Shown here: positions 7,233 to 62,839 of the stretch, in pieces | Position numbering within the stretch: the stretch's first letter is position 1 | How the letters are laid out: the number at the start of each line of letters is the position of its first letter | Source of the DNA: Xanthostigma xanthostigma | Lineage: Eukaryota; Arthropoda; Insecta; Raphidioptera; Raphidiidae | Direction of reading: 5' to 3' | DNA: 64,000 nucleotides | Assembly (NCBI GenBank): GCA_963575645.1 | Contig: OY754465.1 | Coordinates: 33,801,501 to 33,865,500, forward strand | The notes under the pieces: generated by a model | What the model was told of the DNA's origin: nothing | The model's input: the letters and a program-made list of their open reading frames with translations, nothing else | Database searches by the model: none | Made by a program: the position numbers and the translations under genes

Positions 7233-7449
7233 GACTCAGTAGCGTAACTAGGAGTATGTGCGCCCCCCCGCAGATTCCTGAAAGCGCCCTGCTATTTTGC
7301 ACCTGCGCGAAAATATGACTGTTTACTGCGTTCATTTAAACACGAAGACAAGCTTTCAGCTGCCCGTACAGAACACCAACAATTTTAATTGACGTCAAAA
7401 AAATCTATTTCACGTCAAAAAGACATTTTTGAAGTCAAAAAAAAAAAAA

Positions 7450-8186
7450 TTGGTTGTCTGTAAAGTCGGTTTACGGACGATAGTTTTACGTGATAACGTA
7501 TTCCGTAATACATAACCTAAATTTATATAATAATTACAATAATTCGAATCTATGATATTGCATCTTTCGCTTCAAATTTAGGTAAATTTTATTAAGTAGA
7601 ATAATAAAACACTATAAAAAGTACACTATTATTATATAAAAAACAACTATGGCATGTATCTCTTTTGCGCATGCGCCGATTTTCCCCAAAAAATTTACAA
7701 AAATTTCTAGTAAAAATAGATAGAGTAAAAACCGTTTTAAAAACTATATTATTATTATATAAAACATCATTATAAGAGATATATTCTTTTACGCATGCGC
7801 CGATGTTCCCCAAAAACAATAGGCCACTTCATATTTGCATATCAAACATCCTCCCAAAATTTGGTTTCAATCCGCTTATCCTTGGTGTCGGAATGATAAG
7901 AAATGTCAAAAGTGACGTTTGCAACTGTCAAAGTATTATGTTCTAATAATAATTAGTTATTCCAATAGTTAACTTAGAAGGCGTTGCATTTCAGAAAATA
8001 CTAATGTCAAAAAATTGAATTAAACATTAGAAATGCAGCCGTTTTCATGTTAAGACAAGACATACGTTATTTTCTAATTTCCATGTACGGCAAACAAAGA
8101 CGACCGACCGCGTCGCGTCATGCATTAGAGTTTAGACAACATTGCATTTATACAGCTATTTTTCTATATAAATTTGTATAAAAAAA
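7450..8186 (-). mobile_element. Family A element, outer copy in left arm (interrupted)
   Basis: It begins with the family A end TTGGTTGTCTGTAAAGTCGG (reverse orientation). It includes the interior with two GCGCATGCGC-type sites (7666-7675 and, as ACGCATGCGC, 7791-7800), and runs into a second family A end at 8187. There is no coding capacity. The whole forms the left arm of the 7.45-11.2 kb palindrome and matches 9870-11203 in reverse complement. Confidence 0.75.
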
Positions 8187-8849
8187 TGGTTGTCTGTAAA
8201 GTCGGTTTACGGACGATAGTTTTACGTGATAACGTATTCCGTAATACATAACCTAAACCTCCCAAAATTTGGTTTCAATCCGCTTATCCTTGGTGTCGGA
8301 ATGATAAGAAATGTCAAAAGTGACGTTTGCAACTTACAAAGTATTATGTTCTAATAATAATTAGTTATTCCAATACTTAACTTAGAAGGCTTTGCATTTC
8401 ACAATATACTAATGTCAAAAAATTGAATTAAACATTAGAAATGCAGCTGTTTTCATGTTAAGACAAGACATACGTTTGCTTCTAATTTCCATGTACGGCA
8501 AACAAAGACAACCGACCGCGTCGCGCCATGCATTACACAACATTGCATTTATACAGCTATTTTTCTATATAAATTTGTATAAAATATTTTTCTATATAAA
8601 TTTGTATAAAAAAACTGTTTAGGCAAATTCTGTTATACGAAATCTATGTAAAATGTTCTCCTCTTTCGTTTAAGACTGGTTTCAAACCGATCTGATTTTA
8701 ATTGAGCGAGAAATTAGCAAAAAACGTTACGCGTTAGGAACGTTACGCGTTACGCGTTACGAACGTTACACTTTTTCGAACATGCAGCCGGTGTTTTATC
8801 AATTTATAAGATTGGTGATTCATCAATTTATAAGACGTTATCACGTCAA
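8187..8849 (-). mobile_element. Family A element, nested copy
   Basis: The copy runs from the end TGGTTGTCTGTAAAGTCGG (8187) to GACGTTATCACGTCAA (8849). It includes the variable AACGTTACGCGTTACG microsatellite near 8720-8770 and the doubled ATCAATTTATAAGA stretch near the second end. It is flanked on the left by A-run sequence. Its position inside another copy in the same orientation shows self-insertion. Confidence 0.8.
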
Positions 8850-9314
8850 TAAACGTTTATGTTCCGTGCAGCTGATACTGGTAATTATATTGCACTACAA
8901 TAACAATAATTAGTAGATTATATACTCGAGCTTCGTGCGTTTTTTTTGACTTTTTACAGAACAAGTGATAGACAATCGTCTATCACGAGTCTGAATGAAT
9001 GAAAAAATGATTTTTATGCTCGTTGAAGTCGTGTCTAACCTCTTCGAAAGTCATTTCGTATGTCTTTGATTAAGAAATGACTTTCGAAGAGGTCAAAAAT
9101 GGCTTCGGCGAGCATGAAAATTAATATTGTTAGTTAACGTTCAAATTTAAGTATGGGACTTTAATTTTTATTTCGGCACATATTAAATTATTTTTCATTT
9201 ATTATTGTAAATGTCAACTTGTAACAATAACATTGTGCAAGTGATATTAATATTTTATTATTGCTTGATTTTCTCGAAACACACGGCAGTCTTTTTTTCG
9301 AAAATTTATCATTT
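8850..9314. repeat. Central spacer of the family A palindrome, with a perfect 19-bp hairpin
   Basis: A stem of 19 perfect base pairs, CCTCTTCGAAAGTCATTTC at 9039-9057 against 9074-9092, encloses a 16-base loop. Weaker pairing continues outward (about 9020-9035 with 9100-9112). This sits near the symmetry centre of the surrounding palindrome. It resembles a pre-miRNA in shape, but its position argues for a palindrome centre. Confidence 0.7.
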
Positions 9315-11203
9315 TGACGTGATAACGTCTTATAAATTGATGAATCACCAATCTTATAAATTGATAAAACACCGGCTGCATGTTCGAAAAAGTGTAACGT
9401 TCGTAACGCGTAACGTTCCTAACGCGTAACGTTTTTTGCTAATTTCTCGCTCAATTTAAATCAGATCGGTTTGAAACCAGTCTTAAACGAAAGAGGAGAA
9501 CATTTTACATAGATTTCGTATAACAGAATTTGCATAAACAGTTTTTTTATACAAATTTATTTAGAAAAATAGCTGTATAAATGCAATGTTGTCTAATGCA
9601 TAACGCGACGCGGTCGGTCGTCTTTGTTTGCCGTACATGGAAATTAGAAAATAACGTATGTCTTGTCTTAACATGAAAACGGCTGCATTTCTAATGTTTA
9701 ATTCAATTTTTTGACATTAGTATTTTGTGAAATGCAACGCCTTCTAAGTTAACTATTGGAATAACTAATTATTATTAGAACATAATACTTTGACAGTTGC
9801 AAACGTCACTTTTGACATTTCTTATCATTCCGACACCAAGGATAAGCGGATTGAAACCAAATTTTGGGAGGATGTTTGATATGCAAATATGAAGTGGCCT
9901 ATTGTTTTTGGGGAACATCGGCGCATGCGTAAAAGAATATATCTCTTATAATGATGTTTTATATAATAATAATATAGTTTTTAAAACGGTTTTTACTCTA
10001 TCTATTTTTACTAGAAATTTTTGTAAATTTTTTGGGGAAAATCGGCGCATGCGCAAAAGAGATACATGCCATAGTTGTTTTTGACGTGATAACGTCTTAT
10101 AAATTGATGAATCACCAATATTATAAATTGATAAAACACCGACTGCATGTACGAAAAAGTGTAACGTAACGTTCCTAACGTTCCTAACGTTCCTAACGCG
10201 TAACGTTCCGCCTGACCCTGTGCGTGCTTTTTGCTAATTTCTCGCTCAATTTAAATCAGATCGGTTTGAAACCAGTCTTAAACGAAAGAGGAGAACATTT
10301 TACATAGATTTCGTATAACAGAATTTGCCTAAACAGTTTTTTATTCAAATTTATATAGAAAAATAGCTGTATAAATGCAATGTTGTCTAATGCATGGCGC
10401 GACGCGGTCGGTCGTCTTTGTTTGACGTACATGGAAATTAGAAGAGAACGTATGTCTTGTCTTAACATGAAAACGGCTGCATTTCTAATGTTTAATTCAA
10501 TTTTTTGACATTAGTATTTTCTGAAATGCAACGCCTTCTAAGTTAACTATTGGAATAACTAATTATTATTAGAACATAATAGTTTGACAGTATCAAACGT
10601 CACTTTTGACATTTCTTATCATTCCGACACCAAGGATAAGCGGATTGAAACCAAATTTTGGGAGGATGTTTGATATGCAAATATGAAGTGGCCTATTGTT
10701 TTTGGGGAACATCGGCGCATGCGTAAAAGAATATATCTCTTATAATGATGTTTTATATAATAATAATATAGTTTTTAAAACGGTTTTTACTCTATCTATT
10801 TTTACTAGAAATTTTTGTTAATTTTTTGGGGAAAATCAGCGCATGCGCAAAAGAGATACATGCCATAGTTGTTTTTTATATAATAATAGTGTACTTTTTA
10901 TAGTGTTTTATTATTCTACTTAATAAAATTTACCTAAATTTGAAGAGAAAGATGCAATATCATAGATTCGAATTATTATATAAATTTAGGTTATGTATTA
11001 CGGAATACGTTATCACGTAAAACTATCGTCCGTAAACCGACTTTACAGACAACCAATTTTTATATAATAATAGTGTACTTTTTATAGTGTTTTATTATTC
11101 TACTTAATAAAATTTACCTAAATTTGAAGCGAAAGATGCAATATCATAGATTCGAATTATTGTAATTATTATATAAATTTAGGTTATGTATTACGGAATA
11201 CGT
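9315..11203 (+). mobile_element. Family A element, outer copy in right arm, split by a nested copy
   Basis: It starts with TGACGTGATAACGTCTTATA and holds the interior seen in the left arm, including ATCGGCGCATGCG sites near 9918 and 10045. It is interrupted at 10082 and resumes at 11057 with TTATATAATAATAGTG, ending within GGAATACGTT at 11203. The join 'GTTGTTTT...TTATATAATAATAG' is continuous in uninterrupted copies, which shows that 10082-11056 was inserted later. Confidence 0.75.
10082..11056 (+). mobile_element. Family A element, longest uninterrupted copy (about 975 bp)
   Basis: Both ends are present: TGACGTGATAACGTC at 10082 and CTTTACAGACAACCA at 11056. Between them are the CACCGACTGCATG segment, the AACGTTCCTAACG repeat run, a conserved block that includes TTTAAGACTGG in reverse, and two GCGCATGCGC-type sites (10717 and 10842). 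The full-length element then ends with the ACGTTATCACGTAAAACTAT block. No ORF above about 70 codons is shared between copies, so the family is non-coding. Confidence 0.8.
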
Positions 11204-12040
11204 TCGTTTTTCGATATTATGTCACACAATTACTATTTTCTTTTTACGACTTTTCCGTTATTTTCTATATTTATAAGTGAAATCTTAGTTTAATAGCTAT
11301 GTTCGAGTGGAGATATTATGTAAAATTTAGATACGGTAATCGGCTATGATCTATTTACCTGGAATTATTGACGAAAACCATGAACAACCTCAACAAGATG
11401 ACAAGTATATAATATGCAAGTGTGTGAATTGAAAGCAAGTTGTAAGTCACACATGATCGAAAATTGATCTCTTCACGCTGTTTAATATTTTGTTTTCGTA
11501 TTTATTTTATAGTGTTATAGAAAACTAATTTCTTTCTATTTATATTGTTTTATAAATAGTAGAAATTCTAAAAATAATATTAAATCTCCAAATATGAAAA
11601 CGATAAACTTAATAAATTACAAAAGCATAATGTTGCTTATAAAATTAATTGTGAAAAGAACTATATAGACCAAGCTAAAAGAGCTCTCAAAACAAAAAAC
11701 AGAGAACACCAAAATAATCATAAATTAGCCCTGATAAACATAGTGTTATAACTAAACATAAATTCGAACACAACCACAAAATTAATTGAGATAATTTTAG
11801 ATAATGAATCACATTTCTTTAAAAATAATATTTCGGAAATGTTACATATAAAATCAAATAAAAATTCTTGAAATATTATGTAATATATTGTTTTTAAATT
11901 ATATCCATGACTACTTATTAAAAATTAATTATTTGTTATTATTTTTTCAATATTCCGATAATAAAAAAACTTTAGCGAATTTTATTAAAAATTAATTAGA
12001 AACTAATTATTAATTAATTTTTATATTTTTTAGGTCAGTT
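11204..12040. other. AT-rich unassigned sequence
   Basis: No gene was recognised. Runs of A and T dominate, and small frames are all below 60 codons. Confidence 0.4.
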
Positions 12041-26868: not shown

Positions 26869-27418
26869 TTGGTTGTCTGTAAAGTCGGTTTACGGACGAT
26901 AGTTTTACGTGATAACGTATTCCGTAATACATAACCTAAATTTATATAATAATTATAATAATTCGAATCTATGATATTGCATCTTTCGCTTCAAATTTAG
27001 GTTAATTTTATTTAAGTATTAAAATTACTCACCACCTATAATATAATTGTTTTTTTTAACTTTCTTTCTTTCGTATTTATTTTAAGTCTCAAAGATTAAC
27101 TGTCATAATATTTGAAAACAATTGTTTCACTGTTTATATAAAATTCCAAAACCTACTTACAATATTTAAGTATTTTCATACGTCAAAAAATTGATTTTTA
27201 TAATAATAAAATTTGTATGAAAACGATTTTTTCGAGAGATGAGACCTAGCTAAAACGATTTTTTGCCCCCCAAAATCCCTTTTCAGTAAATTTCATCCAA
27301 ATCGTTAGGGCCGTTTTCGAGAAAAGCACGCACAGGGTCAGGCGGAACGTTAGGAACATTACACTTTTTCGTGCATGCAGCCGGTGTTTTATCAATTTAT
27401 AAGACGTTATCACGTCAA
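26869..27418 (-). mobile_element. Family A element, 550 bp variant
   Basis: It runs from TTGGTTGTCTGTAAAGTCGG to ACGTTATCACGTCAA with A-runs on both outer sides (AAAAAAAAA left, AAAAG right). The interior differs from the 975-bp class. It keeps the GATATTGCATCTTTCGC block, then has an unrelated AT-rich middle (27030-27320), then the GCACGCACAGGGTCAGGCGG and GCATGCAGCCGG block. The same middle also occurs at 49830-50060 and 51380-51620. Confidence 0.8.
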
Positions 27419-28979: not shown

Positions 28980-30240
28980 TGGTGCCCGCCCGAACTTTCG
29001 GTTTCTGCCTAGTTTCAGAAAAAAAACTGTTTCGGCTTAGTTTCGGGTTCGGCTGCCACTCGGTCGAAACAGAAACAGGTTTTGCACTGAAATCAGACAT
29101 GTTCTTGTTGTATTTGGTAGGTACGTACTTATTAATTTTAATTTTATTGTAGTTCGTTAACAAGCGTACCATGCAAAATGACCAAAGTTTAGAAAAAATA
29201 ATTTTGTGCTTAAGATGAAAGAATGTTTTTTTTTTTTGTTTTGTGTACCTACCTAAACATATTTAGTAGGTAATTTTTTTTTTACTAAAAATAAATTTTG
29301 TTTTGTAGCTTTTATTTTATTTCATAATATTAAAAAAAAGTATATTGACGTGATAACGTCTTATAAATTGATGAATCACCAATCTTATAAATTGATAAAA
29401 CACCGGCTGCATGCACGAAAAAGTGTAACGTTCCTAAATCCTAACGTTCGTAACGCGTAACGCGTAACGTTCCGCCTGACCCTGTGCGTGCTTTTTGCTA
29501 ATTTCTCGCTCAATTTAAATCAGATCGGTTTGAAACCAGTCTTAAACGAAAGAGGAGAACATTTTACATAGATTTCGTATAACAGAATTTGCCTAAACAG
29601 TTTTTTTATACAAATTTATATAGAAAAATAGCTGTATAAATGCAATGTTGTCTAATGCATGGCGCGACGCGGTCGGTCGTCTTTGTTTGCCGTACATGGA
29701 AATTAGAAGATAACGTATGTCTTGTGTTAACATGAAAACGGCTGCATTTCTAATGTTTAATTCAATTTTTTGACATTAGTATTTTGTGAAATGCAACGCC
29801 TTCTAAGTTAAGTATTGGAATAACTAATTATTATTAGAACATAATACTTTGACAGTTGCAAACGTCACTTTTGACATTTCTTATCATTCCGACACCAAGG
29901 ATAAGCGGATTGAAAACAAATTTTGGGAGGTTTAGGTTATGTATTACGGAATACGTTATCACGTAAAACTATCGTCCATAAACCGACTTTACAGACAACC
30001 AATTTTTTTTTGTGCTTTTTGAAATAAGGGAGCTAATAATATGATAAGTTAATGACTAGTTAAAATATCAGAGGCTGAATGATTAATATGTGATTTATTT
30101 AAAAATATAAAATATACCTACAGACTTAATTATGTTAATGTTTACTTTATTTTTCCCACGAAAACATGAACTTTTGGTTTTGATTTCGGCCTAAACTGAG
30201 ACTAAAGATGAAATTCGGTTTCGGTTTCGATCGGACACTA
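28980..30240. mobile_element. hAT-type MITE carrying a nested family A insertion
   Basis: The ends TGGTGCCCGCCCGAAC and TAGTGTCCGATCGAAAC (read inward) are bracketed by the 8-bp duplication GTGTACAG (28972-28979 and 30241-30248). Subterminal stretches rich in TTTCGG and CGAAAC occur on both sides. Family A (29345-30002) is inserted in the middle and accounts for half of its length. Confidence 0.85.
29345..30002 (+). mobile_element. Family A element, 658 bp copy nested in a hAT MITE
   Basis: It begins TTGACGTGATAACGTC and ends TTTACAGACAACCAA, followed by a T-run. It lacks the interior with GCGCATGCGC sites. It is nearly the same as the nested copy at 8187-8849 in reverse, including the GGGTCAGGCGG-type block and the short AACG repeat run. 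Confidence 0.85.
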
Positions 30241-37480: not shown

Positions 37481-37669
37481 TTGACGTGATAACGTCTTAT
37501 AAATTGATGAATCACGTCAATATAAAAAGATGAAACACCGGCTGCATGCACGAAAAAGTGGAACGTTCCTACCGTTCCGCCTGCGTGCGTGATTATTAAA
37601 TATGATATTCGAGCGGAATACGTTATCACGTAAAACTATCGTTCGTAAACCGACTTTACAGACAACCAA
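37481..37669 (+). mobile_element. Family A, short class (about 190 bp), copy 1
   Basis: The two ends TTGACGTGATAACGTC and TTTACAGACAACCAA are joined by only the GCATGCACGAAAAAGTG segment, a GTTCCGCCTG block and ATTATTAAATATGATATTCG. It lacks all long interior parts, like a MITE form. Confidence 0.87.
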
Positions 37670-37758: not shown

Positions 37759-37951
37759 TTGGTTGTCTGTAAAGTCGGTTTACGGACGATAGTTTTACGT
37801 GATAACGTATTCCGCTCGAATATCATATTTAATTATCACGCACAGGGTCAGGCGGAACGTTACGCACGTTACACTTTTTCGTGCATGCAGCCGGTGTTCC
37901 ATCTTTTTATATTGACGTGATTCATCAATTTATAAGACGTTATCACGTCAA
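37759..37951 (-). mobile_element. Family A, short class, copy 2 (inverted)
   Basis: Inverse of 37481-37669 with small differences, for example GCACGCACAGGGTCAGGCGG here against a shortened form in copy 1, so the copies have diverged or been corrected unequally. Confidence 0.87.
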
Positions 37952-44559: not shown

Positions 44560-46083
44560 AATAAAATTAGTCCGCCTTCTTTAAAAGTCCGCCATATCGA
44601 ATTTAGAGTGACGTCACTTTATTTTTCAAATTATTTTCAGCAAGCCCTTTCATTTGATACCCATATTGTAGGAAAGAATAATAAAATTAGTCCGCCATCT
44701 TTAGAAGTCCGCCATATTGGATTTAGAGTAAAGTCACTTTATTTTTCGAGTTATTTACAGCAAGCCCTTTAATTTGATACCCATATTGTAGGAAAGCATA
44801 ATAAACTTAGTCCGCCATCTTTAGAAGTCCGCCATATTGGATTTAGAGTGACGTCACTTTATTTTTCTAGTTATTTTCAGCAAGCCCTTTCATTTGATAC
44901 CCATATTGTAGGAAATCATAAAAAACTTAGTCCGCCATCTTTAGAAGTCCGCCATCTTTAGAAGTCCGCCATATTGGTTTTAGAGTGACATCACTTTATT
45001 TTTCGAGTTATTCACAGCAAGCCTTTTCATTTGGTACCCATATTGTAGGAAAGCATAATAAAATTAGTCCGCCATCTTAAGAAGTCCGCCATATTAGATT
45101 TAGAGTGACTAGAGTGACGTCACGTTATTTTTCGAGTTATTTTCAGCAATCTCTTTCATTTGATACCCATATTGTAGGAAAGCATAAAAAACTTAGTCCG
45201 CCATCTTTAGAAGTTCGCCATATTGGTTTTAGAGTGACGTCACTTTATTTTTCGAGTTATTCTCAGCAATCCCTTTCATTTGATACCCATATTGTAGGAA
45301 AGCATAATAAAATTAGTCCGCCATCTTTAGAAGTCCGCCATATTGGTTTTAGAGTGACGTCACTTTATTTTTCGAGTTATTCACAGCAAGCCCTTTCATT
45401 TGATACCCATATTGTAGGAAAGCATAATAAAATTAGTCCGCCATCTTTAGAAGTCCGCCATATTGGATTTAGAGTGACATCACTTTATTTTTCGAGTTAT
45501 TTTCAGCAATCTCTTTCATTTGATACCCATATTGTAGGAAAGCATAAAAAACTTAGTCCGCCATCTTTAGAAGTCCGCCATATTGGTTTTAGAGTGACGT
45601 CACTTTATTTTTCGAGTTATTTTCAGCAAGCCCTTTCATTTGATACCCATATTGTAGGAAATCATAAAAAACTTAGTCCGTCATCTTTGGAAGTCCGCCA
45701 TATTGGTTTTAGAGTGACGTCACTTTATTTTTCGAGTTATTCACAGCAAGCCCTTTCATTTGATACCCATATTGTAGGAAAGCATAATAAAATTAGTCCG
45801 CCATCTTTAGACGTCCTCTATATTGTATTTAGAGTGACGTCACTTTCTTTTTCGAGTTATTTTCAGCAAGCCCTTTCATTTGATACCCATATTGTAGGAA
45901 AGCATAATAAACTTAGTCCGCCATCTTTAGAAGTCCGCCATATTGGTTTTAGAGTGACGTCACTTTATTTTTCGAGTTATTTTCAGCAATATCTTTCATT
46001 TGATACCCATATTGTAGGAAAGCATAATAAAACTATTCCGCCATCTTTAGAAGTCCGCCATATTGGATTTAGAGTGACGTCAC
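44560..46083. repeat. Satellite array 1, 120-bp unit, about 13 copies
   Basis: Each 120-bp unit contains CCGCCATCTTTAGAAGTCCG, CCATATTGG, TTTAGAGTGACGTCACTTTA and CCCTTTCATTTGATACCCAT. The period of exactly 120 keeps one frame open, which explains the 328-codon frame at 45105-46091. The first unit is degenerate, and one unit (about 44929-45066) has a local duplication of the CCGCCATCTTTAG part. Every unit carries the palindrome TGACGTCA or a one-base variant. The array ends in a shared tail (46084-46190). Confidence 0.93.
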
Positions 46084-48137: not shown

Positions 48138-48836
48138 TTGGTTGTCTGTAAAGTCGGTTTACGGACGATAGTTTTACGTGATAACGTATTCCGTAAACCT
48201 CCCAAAATTTGGTTTCAATCCGCTTATCCTTGGTGTCGGAATGATAAGAAATGTCAAAAGTGACGTTTGCAACTTACAAAGTATTATGTTCTAATAATAA
48301 TTAGTTATTCCAATAGTTAACTTAGAAGGCTTTGTTTTCACAAAATACTAATGTCAAAAAATAAACATTAGAAATGCAAGGTTTTCATGTTAAGATAAGA
48401 CATACGTTATTTTCTAATTTCCATGTACGGCAAACAAAGACGACCGACCGCGTCGCGCGCGCGCCATGCAATAGACAACAATGCATTTATACAGCTATTT
48501 TTCTATATAAATTTGTATAAAATATTTTTCTATATAAATTTGTATAAAAAAACTGTTTAGGCAAATTCTGTTATACGAAATCTATGTAAAATGTTCTCCT
48601 CTTTCGTTTAAGACTGGTTTCAAACCGATCTGATTTAAATTGAGCGAGAAATTAGCAAAAAGCACGCACAGGGTCAGGCGGAACGTTACGCGTTATGCGT
48701 TATGCGTTATGCGTTACGCGTTACGAACGTTAGGAACGTTAGGAACGTTACGTTACACTTTTTCGTACATGCAGCCGGTGTTTTATCAATTTATAATATT
48801 GGTGATTCATCAATTTATAAGACGTTATCACGTCAA
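48138..48836 (-). mobile_element. Family A element, about 700 bp copy
   Basis: Both ends are present, TTGGTTGTCTGTAAAGTCGG at 48138 and ACGTTATCACGTCAA at 48836, with A-runs on both sides. The variable run of GTTACGCGTTATGCG words at 48680-48750 is longer than in the other copies. It lies right after the composite foldback. Confidence 0.85.
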
Positions 48837-49120: not shown

Positions 49121-50944
49121 CTAGCGGCCCTGTACGTGCTTCGCTACGTATAAAGTGAAATAATAAAAAAATTTAATTGGAACATCTATCTATCTATCTA
49201 TTTTATTAATTGCTAGCTATTTTAAAATATACATGTGCGTATATGTGTGTATGGAAATATATATGACTGCATACGTCAATAAAAAAATAGCGTAAAGTAT
49301 TCGTGGATAACTGGTCTTTAAGACACTTGCTCTATTTCGAGCACTCGGGCTGCGCCGTCGTGCTCGAAAGAAAATAGCGTAAAGTATTCGTGGATAACTG
49401 GTCTTTAAAACACTTGCTCTATTTCGAGCACTCCGGCTGCGCCGTCGTGCTCGAAAAAAAATAGCGTAAAGTATTCGTAGATAACTGGTCTTTAAAACAC
49501 TTGCTCTATTTCGAAGGTTCACTCCGGCTGCGCCGTCGTGCTCGAAAAAAAATAGCGTAAAGTATTCGTGGATAACTGATCTTTAAAACACTTGCTCTAT
49601 TTCGAAGGTTCACTCCGGCTGCGCCGTCGTGCTCGAAAAAAAAAAGCGTAAAGTATTCGTGGATAACTGGTCTTTAAAACACTTGCTCTATTTCGAGGGT
49701 TCACTCCGGCTGCGCCGTCGTGCTCGAAAAAAAAAAGCGTAAAGTATTCGTGGATAACTGGTCTTTAAAACACTTGCCGGTACTTGTAAAACTGATTCGC
49801 CGTCATCTTGATCTATGATATTGCATCTTTCGCTTCAAATTTAGGTTAAAAATTTATTTATTAAATTTATTTATTAAAATTACTCACCTATAATAATAAT
49901 TGTTTTTAACTTTCTTTCAAATACGTATTTATTTTAAGTCTCACTTGGATAGTAATTAAAGATTAACTGTCATAATATTTTGAAAACAATTGTTTCATTG
50001 TTTGTATAAAATTCCAAAACCTACTTACAATATTTAAGTATTTACATACGTCAAAAAATTGATTTTTAAAAAATGCCACTTTTGTTGCAATTTTATAACT
50101 CAAGAACGGACTCACCTATCCAAACCAAATTTTTAGACTTTGTTCGGACTATTTAGTAGATGGTTTATGTGAAGTTTTCACAAAATCGGTCGAGCGGTTC
50201 TTCATTTATCACATTTTTTATATATCTTGGCATTGATTTTTATAGATATTTGTTACAAAAAATGTAATAAATGAAGAACCACTCGATCGATTTTGTGCAA
50301 ACTTCACATAAACCATCTACTAAATAGTCCGAACAAAGCCTAAAAATTTGGTTTGGATAGGTGAGCCCGTTCTTGAGTTATAAAATTACAACGAAAAGTG
50401 GCATCTATATGTATAAAAATCAAAAAGCCACTTTTCGTTGTAATTTTATAACTCAAGAACGGGCTCACCTATCCAAACAAAATTTTTAGGCTTTGTTCAG
50501 ACTATTTAGTAGATGGTTTATGTGAAGTTTGCACAAAATCGGTTGAGCGGTTCTTCATTTATCACATTTTTTGTAACAAATATCTATAAAAATCAATGCC
50601 ACTTTTCGTTGTAATTTTATAACTCAATAACGGGCCTACCTATTCAAACCAAATTTTTAGGCTTTGTTCGGACTATTTAGTAGATGGTTTATGTGAAGTT
50701 TGCACAAAATCGGTCGAGCGGTTCTTCATTTATCACATTTTTTATATATCTTGGCATTGATTTTTATAGATATTTGTTACAAAAAATGAGATAAGTGAAG
50801 AACCGCTCGACCGATTTTGTGCAAACTTCACATAAACCATCTACTAAATAGTCCGAACAAAGCCTTAAAATTTGGTTTGGATAGGTGAGCCCGTTCTTGA
50901 GTTATAAAATTACAACGAAAAGTGGCATTGATTTTTATATACCT
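49121..50944. repeat. Tandem duplication unit 1 (1824 bp)
   Basis: The unit begins CTAGCGGCCCTGTACGTGCT and repeats from 50945. It holds a CTAT microsatellite (49183-49203), six copies of an about 90-bp subrepeat (49286-49780) and family A-like interior (49800-50060). It also has alternating forward and inverted copies of a block around CCATCTACTAAATAGTCCGA. Confidence 0.9.
49286..49780. repeat. Subrepeat array, unit about 86-92 bp, six copies
   Basis: Each unit starts TAGCGTAAAGTATTCG and contains AACTGGTCTTTAAAACACTT and GGCTGCGCCGTCGTGCTCGA. The length differs by a short insertion AAGGTTCA. The minus-strand frame (49217-49522) is a by-product of this period. Confidence 0.9.
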
Positions 50945-52499
50945 ACTAGCGGCCCTGTACGTGCTTCGCAACGTATAAAGTGAAATAATAAAAAAATTTC
51001 ATTGGAACATCTATCTATCTATCTATTTTATTAATTGCTAGCTATTTTAAAATATACATGTGCGTATATGTGTGTATGGAAATATATATGACTGCATACG
51101 TCAATAAAAAAATAGCGTAAAGTATTCGTGGATAACTGGTCTTTAAAACACTTGCTCTATTTCGAAGGTTCACTCCGGCTGCGCCGTCGTGCTCGAAAAA
51201 AAATAGCGTAAAGTATTCGTAGATAACTGGTCTTTAAAACACTTGCTCTGTTTCGAGGGTTTACTCCGGCGGCGCCGTCGTGCTCAAAAAAAAATAGCGT
51301 AAAGTATTCGTGGATAACTGGTCTTTAAAACACTTGCCGGTACTTGTAAAACTGATTCGCCGTCATCTTGATCTATGATATTGCATCTTTCGCTTCAAAT
51401 TTAGGTTAAAAATTTATTTATTAAATTTATTTATTAAAATTACTCACCTATAATAATAATTGTTTTTAACTTTCTTACAAATACGTATTTATTTTAAGTC
51501 TCACTTGGATAGTAATTAAAGATTAACTGTCATAATATTTTGAAAACAATTGTTTCATTGTTTGTATAAAATTCCAAAACCTACTTACAATATTGAAGCA
51601 TTTACATACGTCAAAAAATTGATTTTTAAAAATTGCCACTTTCGTTGTAATTTTATAACTCAAGAACGGACTCACCTATCCAAACCAAATTTTTAGGCTT
51701 TGTTCGGACTATTTAGTAGATGGTTTATGTGAAGTTTGCACAAAATCGGTCGAGCGGTTCTTCATTTATCACATTTTTTATATATCTTGGCATTGATTTT
51801 TATAGATATTTGTTACAAAAAATGTGATAAATGAAGAACCGCTCGATCGATTTTGTGCAAACTTCACATAAACCATCTACTAAATAGTCCGAACAAAGCC
51901 TAAAAATTTGGTTTGGATAGATGAGCCCGTTCTTGAGTTATAAAATTACAACGAAAAGTGGCATCTATATGTATAAAAATCAAAATGCCACTTTTCGTTG
52001 TAATTTTATATTTCAAGAACGGGCTCACCTATCCAAACTAAATTTTTAGGCTTTTTTCGGACTATTTAGTAGATGGTTTGTGTGAAGTTTGCACAAAATC
52101 GGTTGAGCGGTTCTTCATTTATCACATTTTTTGTAACAAATATCTATAAAAATCAATGCCACTTTTCGTTGTAATTTTATAACTCAAGAACGGGCTCACC
52201 TATCCAAACCAAATTTTTAGGCTTTGTTCGGACTATTCAGTAGATGGTTTATGTGAAGTTTGCACAAAATCGGTCGAGCGGTTCTTCATTTATCACATTT
52301 TTTATATATCTTGGCATTGATTTTTATAGATATTTGTTACAAAAAATGAGATAAATGAAGAACCGCTCGACCGATTTTGTGCAAACTTCACATAAACCAT
52401 CTACTAAATAATCCGAACAAAGCCTCAAAATTTGGTTTGGATAGATGAGCCCGTTCTTGAGTTATAAAATTACAACGAAAAGTGGCATTGATTTTTATA
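50945..52499. repeat. Tandem duplication unit 2 (about 1555 bp)
   Basis: Same order as unit 1, but only three copies of the 90-bp subrepeat (51111-51340). This explains the 269-bp difference. It ends in a GATATA microsatellite at 52497-52530. Units 1 and 2 are very similar, so the duplication is recent. Confidence 0.9.
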
Positions 52500-52839: not shown

Positions 52840-54250
52840 TTTTTTTTCAAAATATTTCTGAAATTATGAGTTTATAAAAAAAAATTCATAACTTTCTTGT
52901 AAAAATAGATAGAAAAAAAACCGTTATGAAAAGTACCCAATTATTATTATATAAAAACAACCTTATAGCATATATGCACCGAATTTCGCTCAAAGAATTT
53001 TTTACAAAACTTTCTTTAAAATAGAATAATAAAACATTATAAAAAGTACACCAATATTATATAAAAAACAACTATGACATGTATCTCTTTTGCGCATGCG
53101 CCGATTTTTCCCAAAAATTTACAAAACTCTTGTAAAAATAGATCGAATAAAAAACCGTTATGAAAAGTATACCATTCTTATATACAAACAACTTTATAAC
53201 TTATACCTCTTCTGCGCATGCGCCGACTTTCCCTCAAAAAACATTTTACAAAACTTTCTTGTAAAGTAGAATAATAAACCATTATTAAAAGTACACCACT
53301 ATTATATAAAAAAAAAAAACAACGACGGCATATATACATTTTGCGCATGCGCCAATTTTCTCTAAAAAAAATTTACAAAGCTCGCAAAAATAGATAGTAT
53401 AATAAACCGTTATGAAATATACACCATTATTATATAAAAACAACTTTATAGCATATATCTCTTCTGCGCATGCACCGACTTTCCCTCAAAAAAAAAAACA
53501 TTTTACCTACAAAACTTTCTTGTAAACTGGAATAATAAAACATTATAAAAAGTACACCATTATTATTTAAAAAACAACTATGACATGTATCTCTTTTGCG
53601 CATGCGCCGATTTTTCCCAAAAAATTTACAAAACTCTTGTACAAATAGATCGAATAATAAACCGTTATGAAAAGTATACCATTGTTATATACAAACAACT
53701 TTATAACTTATACCTCTTCTGCGCATGCGCCGACTTTCCCTCAAAAAAAAACATTTTTCAAAACTTTCTTGTAAAATAGAATAAAAAACCATTATTAAAA
53801 GTACACCACTATTATATAAAAAAAAAACAACGACGGCATATATCTCTTTTGCGCATGCGCCGATTTTCCCCAAAAAATTTACAAAAATTTCTAGTAAAAA
53901 TAGAATAATAAACCGTTTAAAAACTATATTATTATTATATAAAACAACATTAAAAGAGATATATTCTTTTACGCATGCGGCGATGTTCCCCAAAAACAAT
54001 AGGCCACTTCATATTTGCATATCAAGCATCCTCCCAAAATTTGGTTTCAATCCGCTTATCCTTTGTGTCGGAATGATAAGAAATGTCAAAAGTGACGTTT
54101 GCATCTGTCAAAGTATTATGTTCTAATAATAATTAGTTATTCAAATTGTTAACTCAGAAGGCGTTGCATTTCACAAATATTTGAAATGACATCCGTTTTT
54201 TAACAAATGCAATCTTTTGATTTTAATAAACAAAATTATCGACCAATTTT
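52840..54250 (-). repeat. Expanded array with GCGCATGCGC palindromes
   Basis: Eight units carry a GCGCATGCGC-type site near 53092, 53214, 53343, 53466 (one base off), 53598, 53721, 53851 and 53971 (two bases off). Spacing alternates about 122 and 130 bp, and two slightly different unit types alternate (CTATGACATGTATCTCTTTT against ACTTTATAACTTATACCTCT). The period is thus a 250-255 bp dimer. In other family A copies only two such units exist. The flank from 53995 matches the family A interior (AATAGGCCACTTCATATTTG). Confidence 0.85.
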
Positions 54251-54705
54251 ATTTTAAGACAGAACATACGCAATTTTTAAATTGCCATATTAAACCGTGC
54301 AACAGAGAGAGATAACCGAAAGGTGTTTGCCATCGGTTATATCAAATTGAATTTATTTCTATATAAATCTTTATAAAAAAAACCGTTTGGGCAAATTCTG
54401 TTGTACGAAATTTATTTAAATTTTCTTCTCTTTCGTTTAAGACAGGTTTCGAACCGATCTGATTTAAATTGAGTGAGTTATAAGCAAAAAACTTCGTTTT
54501 TTTCTTTATTGCACCCCTCTGATGTTAAAATTCAAAAATCGGGCGACATAGGATCTATGTTACCCGGAGACGAATCGAACAAAAAAAAGTTTTTTAAAAT
54601 CGGTTAAGGCATTTGAGCTGTACAATCCACAAAAAAGTGACATACAGATTTACAGACAGAGCGAATACATAGGCGCTTGAGCTCACACTATATATTTAAT
54701 AATTT
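54251..54705 (-). repeat. Family A interior relative
   Basis: It matches 46560-46830: GGAGACGAATCGAACAAAAA, AATCGGTTAAGGC, and ACAGATTTACAGACAGAGCG. It also holds TTTCTTCTCTTTCGTTTAAG, as in the 8640-8690 block. No end motif is present. Confidence 0.6.
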
Positions 54706-55525: not shown

Positions 55526-55886
55526 TCCAATCAATGCACAGAAAAAGCGGCCAAACCTGACAATTCCACCAAACAGCATCGATTAGCACCAAAGTTTGGC
55601 TGTAGGTTCTACTTATCTTCAAAGTTGTCAATGTGCCGAGGCTTGATTTTACCCTGGGGATGGACGCCACCCCTTCTCGAGGATGACATTTTTTTATTAA
55701 AAATAAGTATGGGAATGTATAGATTGACTAATTCTAAGCAGCTTTTGTTCTATAAAGTTTTTACTTAAAGTCAATACTTTTTGACTTATTCGAGAGTGGA
55801 AACGTCAATTTTTCAACAAAAAAAAAACTACGTTTTCAAACGGTTTTGCATGAATAACTCTGAAAATAAGTATTTTATGAAAAAAA

Positions 55887-56080
55887 TGGTTGTCTGTAAA
55901 GTCGGTTTACGGACGATAGTTTTACGTGATAACGTATGCCGCTCAAATATCATATTTAATAATACATTACTGCGCTCTCGCTTGCACGCACAGGGTCAGG
56001 CGGAACGTTACGGCGGAACGTTACACTTTTTCGTGCGTGCAGCTGGTGTCTCATCAATTTATAAGACGTTATCACGTCAA
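55887..56080 (-). mobile_element. Family A, short class, copy 3
   Basis: It starts TGGTTGTCTGTAAAGTCGG and ends ACGTTATCACGTCAA, with A-runs either side. It has a duplicated GGCGGAACGTTAC. Frame MVVCKVGLRTIVLRDNV begins with its end sequence and is repeated wherever the element occurs. Confidence 0.87.
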
Positions 56081-58250: not shown

Positions 58251-58432
58251 TTGGTTGTCTGTAAAGTCGGTTTACGGACGATAGTTTTACGTGATAACGT
58301 ATTCCGCTCGAATATCATATTTAATAATGCATTAATGCGCTCTCGCTTGCACGCACAGGGTCAGGCGGAACGTTACACTATTTCGTGCGTGCAGCTGGTG
58401 TTTCATCAATTTATAAGACGTTATCACGTCAA
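58251..58432 (-). mobile_element. Family A, short class, copy 4
   Basis: It runs from TTGGTTGTCTGTAAAGTCGG to ACGTTATCACGTCAA and is followed within two bases by the first satellite unit of array 2. It is a near match of 55887-56080 in the same orientation, although the flanks of the two are inverted relative to each other. Confidence 0.88.
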
Positions 58433-59327
58433 AAACTTAGTCCGCCATCTTTAGAAGTCCGCCATATTGGATTTAGAGTGACGTCACTTTATATTTCGAG
58501 CTATTCTCAGTAAGCCCTTTCATTTGATACCCATATTGTAGGAAAGCATAATAAAATTAGTCCGCCATCTTTAGAAGTCCGCCATATTGGATTTAGAGTG
58601 ACGTCACTTTATTTTTCGAGTTATTCTCAGCAAGCCCTTTCATTTGATATCCATATTGTAGGAAAGCATAATAAAATTAGTCCGCCATCTTTAGAAGTCC
58701 GCCATATTGGATTTAGAGTGACGTCACTTTATTTTTCGAGTTATTTTCAGCAAGCCCTTTCATTTAATACCCATATTGTAGGAAAGCTTAAAAAACTTAG
58801 TCCGCCATCTTTAGAAGTCCGCCATATTGGTTTTAGACTGACGTCACTTTATTTTTCGAGTTATTCTCAGCAAGTCCTTTCATTTGATACCCATATTGTA
58901 GGAAAGCATAATAAAATTAGTCCGCCGTCTTTAGAAGTCCGCCATATTGGATTGAGAGTGACGTCATTTTATTTTTCGAGTTATTCTCAGCAAGCCCTCT
59001 CATTTGATACCCATATTGTAGGAAAACATAATAAAATTAGTCCGCCATCTTTAGAAGTCCGCCATATTGGATTTAGAGTGACGTCACTTTATTTTTCGAG
59101 TTAATCTCAGCAAGCCCTTTCATTTGATACCCATATTGTAGGAAAGCATAATAAAATTAGTCCACCATCTTTAGAAGTCCGCCATATTGGATTTAGAGTG
59201 AAGTCACTTTATTTTTCGAGTTATTTTCAGCAAGCCCTTTCATTTGATACTCATATTGTAGGAAAGCATAATAAAATTAGTCCGCCATCTTTAGAAGTCC
59301 GCCATATTGGATTTAGAGTGACGTCAC
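58433..59327. repeat. Satellite array 2, 120-bp unit, eight copies
   Basis: Same unit as array 1, with one TGACGTCA per unit (some variants). It begins directly at the end of the family A copy. The 168-codon frame (58598-59104) results from the period of 120. It is followed by the tail shared with array 1. Confidence 0.94.
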
Positions 59328-59585
59328 ACAGCTAACCATGCATTGTCATTCAAACTAAACGTGTATACAAATTTTCATCTCAATCGGTTGATGATATCTG
59401 CTTCAAAATTACCGAAGGCATTTCCGCCATCTTTAGAAGTCCGCCATATTGGATTTAGAGTGACGTCACACAGCTAACCATGCATTGTCATTCAAACTAA
59501 ACGTGTATACAAATTTTCATCTCAATCGGTTGATGATATCTGCTTCAAAATTACCGAAGACATTCTAGTCGCTCACTTAGTAACG
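59328..59585. repeat. Tail of array 2, duplicated
   Basis: ACACAGCTAACCATGCATTG to ATCTGCTTCAAAATTACCGA appears twice (59328-59420 and 59467-59560), separated by one incomplete satellite unit. It ends AGTCGCTCACTTAGTAA, as in array 1. Confidence 0.8.
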
Positions 59586-59999
59586 TTATAGTTTAAGCTC
59601 CCATGACACAAAAAGTTACCCCAAAGAACACCTCAAAATTATAAAGTGAAAATGGCTGAAAAACATGTCAGAAACATGTTACGCCCGCCAGACAAGTAAA
59701 AATTTGTTAATTGTTATTTTTTATGAATTTTTGAAATTTAAAAAAAAAACATGATTTTACTTTCCAAAACACCTGCTTGAAATTTATACAATTTGTAGTA
59801 AATAATGTACCATTTTTGAAAAAATTGGTCTGGCTGACAATTTTTGTTAATTAATGTGCCAGACTTAATTTGTTATAAATTATTTTTTTTATGAAAATAC
59901 ATTTCATAACACCTCCTTGATTTTTTTTTTTAAATAAAGTTTAAGATCTCTTCTATCTAATACAACTGGTCTGGCTGACAATTTTTGTTAATTAATACC

Positions 60000-61010
60000 T
60001 CTAATATGCTTTTTAGTCCAGTCGGTGGAGGCAATTTTAGACCAAAAGCTCCAGAAATTCGCAAACAGACTCAATTTTTTTTTATAAGTAGTTTAAAGTG
60101 TACTGATTGAAATAAAAAAAAGTTCATTCGTCTATCGATTTCCCAAAGTCAAAAAAAATTTTGAAAAAAATTTTTATTTTCAAAATTCTTGAATATTTTG
60201 AGCTGGGATAAAGATAGAGATAAATAAAAAATACTGTATTGTAAAGGACGTTTTTTTCTATAAAAAAGATATCTTGTACTTTTTTCGTCAGAGCTATAGT
60301 TTACCTGGAAAAAATTCGGAAAGTTAGTAAGTCATCTTGCGCCGGCAAACATGCAATTAAAATCACTTTGCAGAAGCAAGAATCATTAAATTTTACTAAA
60401 ATGTTTATAACATTATTTGTCTATAAATGCATATTCTAAATATTCCAAATAAAAAATTGAAAAAAAAACAAAATTTTCAAAAAAAAATCAAAATTTGCAA
60501 AAAAAAAAATTCAAAATTTGCAAAAAATTTTCGGAAAATAATTTTTTTTTGTTTTTGGCGTCGGAACTATTTTTTTAGGTTTTTTGGACAATTCTAAAGA
60601 AAAAAGGTCTCTTATGATTTTCCTATAAAATGGACCGTTTTTGAGATATTGCATTTGGAAAGTTCGAAAAAATGCGTTTTTCGTACTAAAAATCGCTGCA
60701 ATATGACGGTGTTTTGTCAAAAATCACTATCACTACATCTGTATATTATAAGCGTTAGACTGGCAAAAATTCGAAAATGACTCGAGCGATTTTAATACTT
60801 TTTTTTTGTTTTGTTCGCCTGAATACAGGGGTGGTTTATTAAAAAAAATTCCAAAGGAACAGCCGAAAAATGGAAAAATTCAAAATTTTTTTGTATATGT
60901 TCATGATAGTCCCAATAATATTTTTGTGGAAAGAAAAACTGCAATATAAACTCAGAATATGGTGGAGCTACTATTGTCACTGCTGAGCGGAGCACAGCCC
61001 CGTGAAGCGA
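60000..61010. other. Foldback interior, AT-rich, unassigned
   Basis: No gene and no bounded repeat was recognised; A-runs and T-runs predominate. Confidence 0.4.
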
Positions 61011-61019
61011 AAAAAAAAA

Positions 61020-61690
61020 ATAGTCGCGGCGCTTTAAAATTAAGTCTGACAGTAAAAAACAATATTTTGATAAAAAATGTATTAAAGTATATAAAAGGGA
61101 TCTAGCGTATTAATTTAGAATAAAAAAAAAAAATTTTCTAGTTAGCAACGATTATACCATATTTTTTCATTAAAAAATGTGGTCGCAGCACTTAAAAAAT
61201 GAAGTCTGTCATAGTAAAAAACATTTTTTCGCTGACAGACCAATTTTTATGCGGAAAATAGATGTCAAACCTTCTTTCAGAAAAAAATTAAGGGGGTGTT
61301 TTGACGCGCCCGTTGTAAAAGCTTATTTAAAAAAAAAAAAAAACAGTCGCGGCGCTTTAAAATTAAGTCTGTCATAGTAAAAAACAATATTTTGATAAAA
61401 AATGTATTAAAGTATATAAAAGGGATCTACCGTATTTATTTAGAGTAAAAAAAAATTTTGTTTTCTAGTTAGCAATGATTATACCATATTTTTTCATTAA
61501 AAAATGTGGTCGCAGCACTTAAAAAATAAAGTCTGTCATAGTAAAAAACATTTTTTCGCTGACAGACCAATTTTTATGCGGAAAATAGATGTCAAACCTT
61601 CTTTCATAAAAAAATTAAGGGGGTGTTTTGACACGGCCCTTGGAAAAGCTGATTTGTTTATAAAAAAACGCTGTCACGGCGCTTAAAAAT
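61020..61690. repeat. Two direct repeats of about 325 bp
   Basis: AGTCGCGGCGCTTTAAAATT, AAAGTATATAAAAGGGATCT, ATGTGGTCGCAGCACTTAAA, GACAGACCAATTTTTATGCG and AGGGGGTGTTTTGAC occur in each. The two copies produce the pair of frames at 61177-61377 and 61504-61686. The GTCTGTCATAGTAAAAAAC part resembles the GTCTGGC words of the foldback arms. Confidence 0.85.
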
Positions 61691-61740
61691 TGAATCTGAC
61701 ATGGTAAAAAACATTTTTTTAATGACAGGCATATTTTTAT

Positions 61741-62226
61741 TAGAGATGCGACGAATATTCGGCTACTATTCGGTATTCGGCCTATTCGGCTACTTTTTTT
61801 AATATTCGGTATTCGGCCGAATGTTGTGTACTATTCGGCCGAATACCGCATATCAAATCATGGGGAAAAACGCACATATTACTCAAAAATATGCGATTTT
61901 TTTCTTAAATAGTATTATTTTGTAAAGCTTTTAGTGACCAAACAGTGATATTTTTAGTAATAAGGACTATTAATAACACAATTTGATGTAACATTAAACA
62001 ATGAACAAATAATGCGTGACACGGTCTAGTTGCGCAAATGAAACAAATACGCCCGCAGCGTTGCTACCGCACGCTTCGTAATAGGACAAGTTGTAACCTG
62101 TCACCCGCGAAATGTACAAATAATTAGCCGAACATTCGGCCGCCGAATATTCGGAGCTTCGGCCGAGAACATGGCCGAATATTCGGTATTCGGTATTCGG
62201 CAAAATCACTATTCGTGGCATCACTA
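61741..62226. mobile_element. hAT-type MITE with TTCGGTATTCGG subterminal repeats, copy 2
   Basis: The ends TAGAGATGCGACGAATATTC and TAGTGATGCCACGAATAG (read inward) are flanked by the perfect 8-bp duplication ATTTTTAT (61733-61740 and 62227-62234). It is similar to 30251-30711. Clusters of TATTCGGC lie on both sides. It has inserted in the foldback next to the direct repeats. Confidence 0.93.
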
Positions 62227-62757
62227 ATTTTTATGCATAGAGGACATCTTAAACTTCAGTTGTTTTTTTTTTTTTACGAGGTGTTCCTAAATGCCTGTGA
62301 TTGGTCTTGATGCATTGTTGCTGTGCATTCAAAATAAAGTCTGGCACATTAATTAACAAAAATTGTCAGCCAGACCAGTTGTATTAGATAGAAGAGATCT
62401 TAAACTTTATTTAAAAAAAAATTCAAGGAGGTGTTATGAAATGTATTTTCATAAAAAAAAATAGTTTATAACAAATGAAGTCTGGCTAGCTTATTAACAA
62501 AAATTGTCAGCCAGACCAATTTTTTCAAAAATGGTACATTATTTACTACAAATTGTATAAATTTCAAGCAGGTGTTTTGGAAAGTAAAATCATGTTTTTT
62601 TTTTAAATTTCAAAAATTCATAAAAAATAACAATTAACAAATTTTTACTTGTCTGGCGGGCGTAACATGTTTCTGACATGTTTTTCAGCCATTTTCACTT
62701 TATAATTTTGAGGTGTTCTTTGGGGTAACTTTTTGTGTCATGGGAGCTTAAACTATT

Positions 62758-62839
62758 AGGAACGTTACACTTTTTCGTGCATGCGGCCAGTTTTTTATTT
62801 TGACGTGATTCATCAATTTATAAGACGTTATCACGTCAA
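62758..62839 (-). repeat. Family A terminal fragment
   Basis: Only the end with GAACGTTACACTTTTTCGTG, GCATGCGGCC and GACGTTATCACGTCAA is present, directly after the foldback. The short class in other places has the rest to the left, so this copy was cut by the foldback or by duplication. Confidence 0.75.

What the first reader, a model, noticed from the sequence alone, without database searches (positions are those of the whole stretch)
7450..11203. Family A: self-nesting, non-coding repeat that builds palindromes
Seen in sequence: at least nine copies or large pieces (7450, 8187, 9315, 10082, 26869, 29345, 37481, 37759, 48138, 55887, 58251, plus a fragment at 62758). The ends are asymmetric: one starts TGACGTGATAACGTC (a hairpin with a 4-base loop), and the other ends ACAGACAACCA with an internal ACGTTATCACGT. 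Sizes cluster near 190, 550, 660-700 and 975 bp, and copies sit beside A or T runs. Copies insert inside other copies in the same orientation, and they often form arms of palindromes. Inference: this is one active or recently active non-autonomous family with Helitron-like or unusual TIR features; no known superfamily fits perfectly by eye.
Basis: partly seen in the sequence, partly recalled or inferred. Interest (0 to 1): 0.75.

Follow-up and report, generated by a model that had tools for sequence, protein, structure and literature searches.

The report
High-copy non-coding rolling-circle transposon family
The repeat is a gene-less rolling-circle transposon of the Helentron (HINE/Helitron2) type, present in tens of thousands of copies, that inserts into runs of T; its nesting in one orientation follows from that target choice, and nested copies appear to go on to spread as new compound elements.

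Summary
The window holds 12 pieces, 9 of them complete copies, of one family with fixed ends; the genome (623 Mb) holds 25,953 copies of its 3' end (29-mer, up to 3 mismatches; reversed control 0). Read in its own orientation a copy is TTT|TGACGTGATAACGTC ... ACGTTATCACGT-37 nt with a stem-loop ending CCA-(A)|TTTT. That is the published anatomy of HINEs (non-autonomous Helentrons, Helitron2): a 12-bp palindromic repeat 2 nt from the 5' end, its partner 37 nt from the 3' end, a hairpin beyond it, a T-run target. Size classes share about 35 bp (5') and about 50 bp (3'); interiors differ, and the 970-bp class carries a piece of another repeat. Empty sites confirm the ends. T-run targeting fixes insertion orientation, which explains same-orientation nesting. 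The palindrome arms are separate insertions. Two composites in the window, 7451-8848 and 58252-62838, are single insertion units by empty-site test; one composite junction recurs 646 times. Helentron genes exist in the genome, but no flank that I could fetch shows these ends, so the autonomous partner is not identified. New family of a known kind, with informative composites.

The parts
7451..8186 (-). HINE copy 1, 3' part only (970-bp class; 5' part absent); 3' end at 7451
8187..8848 (-). HINE copy 2, complete, 662 bp, joined to copy 1 at its T7 tract
7451..8848 (-). Composite insertion unit 5'(copy 2)-3'(copy 2)-rest of copy 1-3'(copy 1), 1398 bp; 5 bridging paralogous empty sites
9315..11204 (+). 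HINE copy 3 (pieces 9315-10081 and 11056-11204; last 45 bp missing) interrupted by copy 4
10082..11055 (+). HINE copy 4, complete, 974 bp, nested in a T6 tract of copy 3, same orientation; empty site shown by other copies
26870..27417 (-). complete HINE copy, 548 bp
29346..30001 (+). complete HINE copy, 656 bp; single T at 5' flank
37482..37668 (+). complete HINE copy, 187 bp, in arm 1 of a host inverted repeat
37760..37950 (-). complete HINE copy, 191 bp, in arm 2 of the same host inverted repeat
48139..48835 (-). complete HINE copy, 697 bp
55887..56079 (-). complete HINE copy, 193 bp
58252..58431 (-). complete HINE copy, 180 bp; 3' module of the composite below
58252..62838 (-). Composite insertion unit, 4587 bp: 5' end at 62838, an element with inverted arms, a 120-bp satellite array, inner 5' end at 58431, 3' end at 58252; empty site at 55575-55803
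58433..59327 (.). 120-bp tandem array carried inside the composite
52876..54690 (-). copy of the repeat (unique part plus ~123-bp tandem array) of which a segment is carried in the 970-bp HINE class

Best explanation
It is a non-autonomous Helentron (HINE; Helitron2-type) family moved in trans by a Rep/helicase. SHOWN: fixed asymmetric ends; a 12-bp palindromic subterminal repeat at both ends; a 3' hairpin sequence; T-run target; no target duplication other than possible Ts; no long reading frame; variable interiors, one of which is a piece of another repeat; empty sites; two window composites that inserted as units. INFERRED: a Helentron Rep-helicase nicks at the 5' end, peels off a single strand 5' to 3', normally stops at the 3' hairpin, and inserts the strand into a T-run, so that orientation follows the T-run. 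When a copy sits inside another copy in the same orientation (the long classes carry a T7 tract), replication can start at an outer 5' end and stop at the inner 3' end, or start at the inner 5' end and run past the inner 3' end to the outer one. Either way a composite with a new interior is made and can spread. The confidence given is for the class of element; for the composite mechanism see the first rival.
For: Ends: of 48 copies, 5' palindrome exact in 48, 3' palindrome exact in 46 and then always 37 nt from CCA, hairpin sequence exact in 45. T-runs on the element's own strand: at least 3 T at the 5' side in 45 of 48 and at the 3' side in 48 of 48, against 6.5% background for TTT. Published HINE/Helitron2 anatomy and T-rich or TTTT targets. 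Empty sites for single copies (L032, L025, L026, L070, window 10082-11055). Interiors unrelated between classes while both ends match. Positions 131-824 of the 970-bp class are 81% identical to an independent repeat. Composite empty sites: 5 of 26 rows bridge the joint for 7451-8848, 42 of 42 listed rows for 58252-62838 (40 of 336 candidates were scored), 17 of 44 for L019 (70-83% identity). Satellite/T5/5'-end junction: 646 copies, control 0. Insertions into one T tract of the element: 115 exact 5' junctions, control 0. Helentron-type genes are in the genome; Helentron C ends in a 12-nt palindrome, an inverted repeat and a T-run laid out alike.
Against: No autonomous element with these ends was found: families A, B, C and D were only partly fetched and none shows them. 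The 3' hairpin is not unusually stable (z -1.09; 31 of 200 shuffles fold as well). Filled sites carry about 3 to 7 extra T (my count), so a short T duplication cannot be told from Ts that belong to the element. The composites could also arise by recombination between the direct repeats of nested copies. 30 of the anchor loci were picked by an exact 3'-end match, so 3' conservation is partly selection.
Confidence: 0.9

Rival explanations
1. Composites arose after insertion: homologous recombination between the direct-repeat ends of nested copies deleted one copy's 5' or 3' part, with no read-through replication.
For: Nested copies are direct repeats; deletion between the two 5' modules (or the two 3' modules) gives exactly the structures at 7451-8848 and 58252-62838. 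A nest with the same 3' junction and with the expected outer sequence before its 5' junction lies at C2:34875474/34876141 (its DNA was not read).
Against: The satellite composite junction recurs 646 times, and the two loci examined have different outer flanks, so that composite appears to move as a unit, however it first arose. For 7451-8848 both models stand.
Confidence: 0.4
2. A MITE or other TIR DNA transposon family.
For: Short, non-coding, very high copy number, A/T-run flanks.
Against: The two termini are not inverted complements; the shared 12-mer is 2 nt from one end and 37 nt from the other; no non-T target duplication seen.
Confidence: 0.03
3. A SINE or other retroposed element with an oligo-T/A tail.
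For: The 3' T-run is longer than the 5' one in 41 of 48 copies.
Against: No tRNA in 7300-11400, no Rfam match in the window, defined hairpin ends, interiors change while both ends stay.
Confidence: 0.03
4. A canonical Helitron (Helitron1) derivative; such genes give the best Rep matches in this genome.
For: The 30 top PF14214 loci all carry the Helitron-type motif RGLPHCH.
Against: No 5'-TC / CTRR-3' ends, no A|T target, and a 5' palindrome that Helitron1 lacks.
Confidence: 0.04

Closest known systems
HINE-Mo-1 to -7 of the mite Metaseiulus occidentalis (Thomas et al. 2014, PMC4067079; abstract and parts 1-2 of 3 of the Results seen)
   Same: Palindromic 12-15 bp subTIRs 2-4 nt from the 5' end and 38-60 bp from the 3' end, 3' palindrome, T-rich target with at least two T at each side, no target modification, T number varies between copies.
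   Different: Letters of the ends; 3' subTIR at 37-38 nt, the short edge of their range; here no autonomous partner with the same ends was found; composites with a recurring inner junction.
Helitron2 non-autonomous elements such as Helitron-1N1_CRe (Bao and Jurka 2013, PMC3627910; passages seen)
   Same: Asymmetric terminal inverted repeats, hairpins at both ends, T at the 5' end, insertion after TTTT without target duplication.
   Different: 3' repeat 37 nt from the end rather than about 20-30; different sequence.
Cg_HINE elements of the Pacific oyster (Vojvoda Zeljko et al. 2020, PMC7492417; passages seen)
   Same: Shared end modules around satellite-like central repeats, units of which also occur elsewhere; oligo-T target; autonomous partner not matched there either.
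   Different: Here the satellite composite contains a second, inner 5' end, and some size classes lack a central array.
DINE-1/INE-1 of Drosophila (as described in PMC4067079)
   Same: Very high-copy HINE-type repeat with subTIRs and a 3' stem-loop.
   Different: DINE-1 subTIRs are not palindromic, and it has an added IR and core.

Membership tests
HINE (non-autonomous Helentron / Helitron2) | Palindromic subTIR of 11-15 bp, 2-4 nt from the 5' end | tested here: met
   ACGTGATAACGT at 2 nt, 48 of 48 copies
HINE (non-autonomous Helentron / Helitron2) | Matching subTIR about 38-60 bp from the 3' end | tested here: met
   37 nt to CCA in 46 of 46 copies with an exact 3' subTIR, 38 to CCAA: the short edge of the range
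HINE (non-autonomous Helentron / Helitron2) | Palindrome or stem-loop between 3' subTIR and terminus | tested here: met
   GTCCGTAAA-CCGAC-TTTACAGAC, 8 pairs around one C.A mismatch; predicted by DNA folding but not more stable than shuffles
HINE (non-autonomous Helentron / Helitron2) | Inserts in TT / T-rich target | tested here: met
   T-runs of 3 or more in 45 of 48 (5') and 48 of 48 (3')
HINE (non-autonomous Helentron / Helitron2) | No target site duplication | tested here: inconclusive
   Empty sites show only extra Ts; 3 of 48 copies have a single T at the 5' side, which argues against a T duplication
HINE (non-autonomous Helentron / Helitron2) | No coding capacity | tested here: met
   Longest ATG-started frame 79 aa among the 48 copies
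HINE (non-autonomous Helentron / Helitron2) | Ends shared with an autonomous Rep/Hel/endonuclease Helentron | tested here: inconclusive
   Helentrons A-D present, but no shared ends in the fetched flanks, which do not reach both ends of each family
Canonical Helitron (Helitron1) | 5'-TC, CTRR-3', insertion between A and T, no 5' hairpin | tested here: not met
TIR transposon / MITE | Complementary terminal inverted repeats at both termini plus target duplication | tested here: not met
SINE | tRNA/5S/7SL-derived promoter | tested here: not met
   ARAGORN on 7300-11400: 0; Rfam gathering scan of the whole window: 0; that Rfam holds 5S and 7SL models is recalled

The most novel reading that the evidence does not exclude
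Nesting is the family's route to new elements: because long copies carry their own T-run target, copies nest head-to-tail in one orientation, and one-way replication from any 5' end to any 3' end converts nests into new compound elements that carry satellites and other transposons. The satellite composite (646 junctions) and the unit at 7451-8848 would be natural records of 'first terminator' stopping and of terminator read-through in Helentrons, made by a Rep that need not share the family's interior.
Probability: 0.4. Interest if true: 0.5.

Novelty: new member of a known kind. Interest (0 to 1): 0.37.

Why it matters
It puts an unclassified family of about 26,000 3' ends (about one per 24 kb) into a defined superfamily and gives exact ends, which lets annotators separate it from MITEs. 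The nested composites give a countable record of how rolling-circle transposons acquire new interiors and disperse satellite DNA, a process that is otherwise hard to see.

Tried and rejected
Autonomous partner: searched by Pfam PF14214, by the C-terminal part of a Helentron (56 of 268 candidates scored) and by its Rep-helicase part (51 of 192 scored). Flanks of families A-D were checked. A: no such 5' end within 2.8 kb upstream of the C1 copy nor in the upstream pieces of two other copies, one of which (A3) shares no upstream sequence with the other two; a 245-bp HINE downstream is an insertion absent from two other copies. B: none in about 3 kb up and 4 kb down. C: ends in a different hairpin; its 5' end was not found in 2.2 kb. 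D: no hairpin at the point where two copies part.

Rejected: inverted duplication as source of the palindrome (the first comparison, mixed regions and counted gaps: copy 1-copy 4 96.3%, copy 1-others 95.9-99.0%); SINE; canonical Helitron. Led nowhere: exact 3'-end scans of viral contigs and genome contigs (0 and 0); paper search for the end sequences (6 papers, judged unrelated from titles and abstract starts only); a search for Helentron coding pieces in the other loci gave, besides family A's own gene and the Helitron loci (not printed), one short match each in L072, L081 and L082.
Full report
WHAT IS THERE. The window is G000:C2:33801501-33865500 of a 623-Mb genome in 28 contigs. It holds ten exact 3' ends and eleven exact 5' ends of one repeat. 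Genome-wide the 49-bp 3' end has 17,617 exact copies (8,760 + 8,857) and the reversed control none. The terminal 29-mer with up to three mismatches has 25,953, again with control none. From the window and loci L001-L083 I collected 48 distinct complete copies (52 before removing doubles). Two biases apply. Thirty loci (L009-L038) are the first 30 listed of the 17,617 exact matches, all from the start of one contig, and eight (L001-L008) are top hits to the copy at 7450. Copies whose 5' end differs by more than 3 of 22 bases were not paired (L006; L018 probably).

ANATOMY. In the element's own direction: T-run, TGACGTGATAACGTC, an interior, ACGTTATCACGT, 37 nt that include GTCCGTAAA-CCGAC-TTTACAGAC and end in CCA, then A in 44 of 48, then a T-run. 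The 5' 12-mer ACGT-GATA-ACGT is exact in 48 of 48, its 3' partner in 46 of 48, the hairpin sequence in 45 of 48. The predicted hairpin is not exceptional against shuffles (z -1.09). The longest ATG-started frame is 79 aa. Lengths fall into 170-250 (18), 412-413 (2), 548-594 (10), 653-697 (8) and 939-1027 bp (10). Between the class representatives compared, about the first 35 bp (plus a related stretch to about 90 bp) and the last 48-55 bp are shared, with short further matches. Exceptions are the 653-697 and 939-1027 classes, which share most of their length. Within the 939-1027 class mean pairwise identity is 98.6% and within 653-697 97.6%, gaps excluded, so activity was recent; part of the long class was chosen for similarity. 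The 548-594 class mixes unlike interiors (minimum identity 54%).

TARGET AND ENDS. At least three T precede the 5' end in 45 of 48 and follow the 3' end in 48 of 48; the background for TTT is 6.5%. The run is T, not A, on the element's own strand, so orientation is set by the tract. Paralogous empty sites exist for single copies: L032 (two local paralogs, 90-92%), L025 (86%), L026 (82%), the 245-bp copy in L070 (82-88%), and the nested copy 10082-11055 against many other copies (98%). Counted by eye, filled sites carry about 3-7 extra T (and 7 and 4 for the pair at 37482/37760). This leaves open whether the Ts belong to the element or are a T duplication. Three of 48 copies (L027, window 29346, window 8187) have one T at the 5' side and long T-runs at the 3' side, which favours Ts belonging to the 3' end.

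WHAT IT IS. Thomas et al. 2014 (PMC4067079; abstract and Results parts 1-2 of 3 seen) describe HINEs with palindromic 12-15 bp subTIRs 2-4 nt from the 5' end and 38-60 bp from the 3' end, a 3' palindrome, T-rich target, no target modification and varying T number. Bao and Jurka 2013 (PMC3627910; passages) describe Helitron2 likewise, with 5' T, hairpins at both ends and insertion after TTTT. The family meets these features, except that the absence of a target duplication is inconclusive and the partner is unknown. It does not show those of canonical Helitrons, TIR elements or SINEs. The 3' subTIR distance (37 nt to CCA, 38 to CCAA) is at the short edge of the HINE range and beyond the Helitron2 range of about 20-30.

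AUTONOMOUS PARTNER. Of 89 PF14214 matches the 30 fetched as loci are canonical Helitrons with RGLPHCH. Helentron-type genes exist. Family A at C1:60108002 has RGSPHVH in a 2,405-aa frame with DUF6570, Helitron_like_N, PIF1, an Exo_endo_phos_2 match below its cut-off (20.9 against 27.4 bits) and a C-terminal UCH domain. Families B, C and D are 33-46% alike to A. None of the flanks fetched shows the HINE ends as own ends, but they do not reach both ends of each family. Helentron C's 3' end, where three copies part, has a GTAC-GATT-GTAC palindrome 39 nt from the end (my count), the inverted repeat GTGCGAGTC/GACTCGCAC (not folded) and a T-run: the same layout, other letters. This is modest support, as a 4-4-4 palindrome starts at about 1% of positions by chance (664 of 64,000). 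The partner is unidentified. The oyster HINE study reports the same gap (PMC7492417 passages).

INTERIORS ARE ACQUIRED. Positions 131-824 of the 970-bp class are 81% identical to L072:1963-1277 and to window 54492-53774. Those two loci share a longer stretch with each other (84% over 1,139 columns) that runs past the HINE segment on both sides and into a ~123-bp tandem array. No HINE end was found there (for L072; for the window). The simplest reading is capture of a piece of that repeat by the HINE; the direction is inferred from the other repeat extending past both breakpoints.

NESTING AND COMPOSITES. The element contains the tract CCTAAACAG-T(6-8)-ATACAAATTTAT in 17 of 48 copies. The 5' junction of an insertion into this tract occurs 115 times exactly in the genome, control 0. 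Two larger units were then found. First, 8848 to 7451 (1,398 bp): copy 2 followed by the 3' part of copy 1 only. Its joined outer flanks match uninterrupted sites at 5 places on C5, C7, C10 (two) and C12 (5 of 26 rows bridge the joint, 81-85% identity). Second, 62838 to 58252 (4,587 bp): a 5' module, a ~3.2-kb element with 303-nt inverted arms (59588-62756), a 120-bp satellite array, an inner 5' end and a 3' end. Its joined flanks match across the joint in 42 of 42 listed rows (40 of 336 candidates scored) and at window 55575-55803 (84%). L019 (C1) carries the same plan without the 3.2-kb element, in 790 bp with other flanks. Of the 44 rows of its search, 17 bridge the joint by at least 20 bases each side, at 70-83% identity, weaker than the other two. 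The satellite/T5/5'-end junction occurs 646 times (up to two mismatches), control 0. I infer that this compound element is itself a dispersed subfamily; only two of the 646 were looked at with flanks, so repeated hits on one satellite site are not excluded. Rolling-circle stopping at the first 3' end, or reading past one, would make these units; recombination between direct repeats of nested copies could also make them.

PALINDROMES. Over the same region, gaps excluded, arm copies 1 and 4 are 98.5% identical; copy 1 is 97.9-100% and copy 4 96.6-98.5% identical to nine copies elsewhere, so the arms are separate insertions and copy 1's nearest relatives lie elsewhere (six of the nine were fetched as top hits to copy 1). 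The inverted repeat at 37.4-38.0 kb is host sequence with one HINE in each arm. In the window 4 of 11 neighbouring pairs are inverted (my count), no excess.

NOVELTY. A new family of a known kind. The paper search for its end sequences gave six papers, apparently unrelated by title and abstract start; the searches on Helentron, HINE and Helitron2 were seen as listings apart from the three papers named. Repbase was not available. Possible new content: the measured composites and the tract-set orientation of nesting.

Noticed in passing
L069:2799 to L070:13 (C1:60105800-60113014): Family A Helentron carries a C-terminal UCH (ubiquitin hydrolase) domain after a weak endonuclease match, in a 2,405-aa open frame.
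   Followed up: partly
L071 (C2:39306541-39310740) and L070: Helentrons B and A have long tandem arrays beyond their genes: 253 bp x 15.5 at B, repeats spaced about 265 bp at A.
   Followed up: partly
window 59588-62756: A ~3.2-kb element with 303-nt inverted arms (98% complementary) lies inside the HINE composite.
   Followed up: partly
window 44560-46083: Another array of the same 120-bp satellite has no HINE end found beside it.
   Followed up: no
window 11204: Outer copy 3 stops inside its 3' palindrome (ACGTT|), losing the last 45 bp; cause unknown.
   Followed up: no
C10:11.9-13.7 Mb: A dense field of decayed Helentron A-like gene pieces, many with recurring match boundaries, suggesting local duplication.
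   Followed up: no
window 49281-52303: A 91-bp array, a 13-bp repeat and a 171-bp pair recur about 1,560 bp further on, as if that stretch were duplicated.
   Followed up: no
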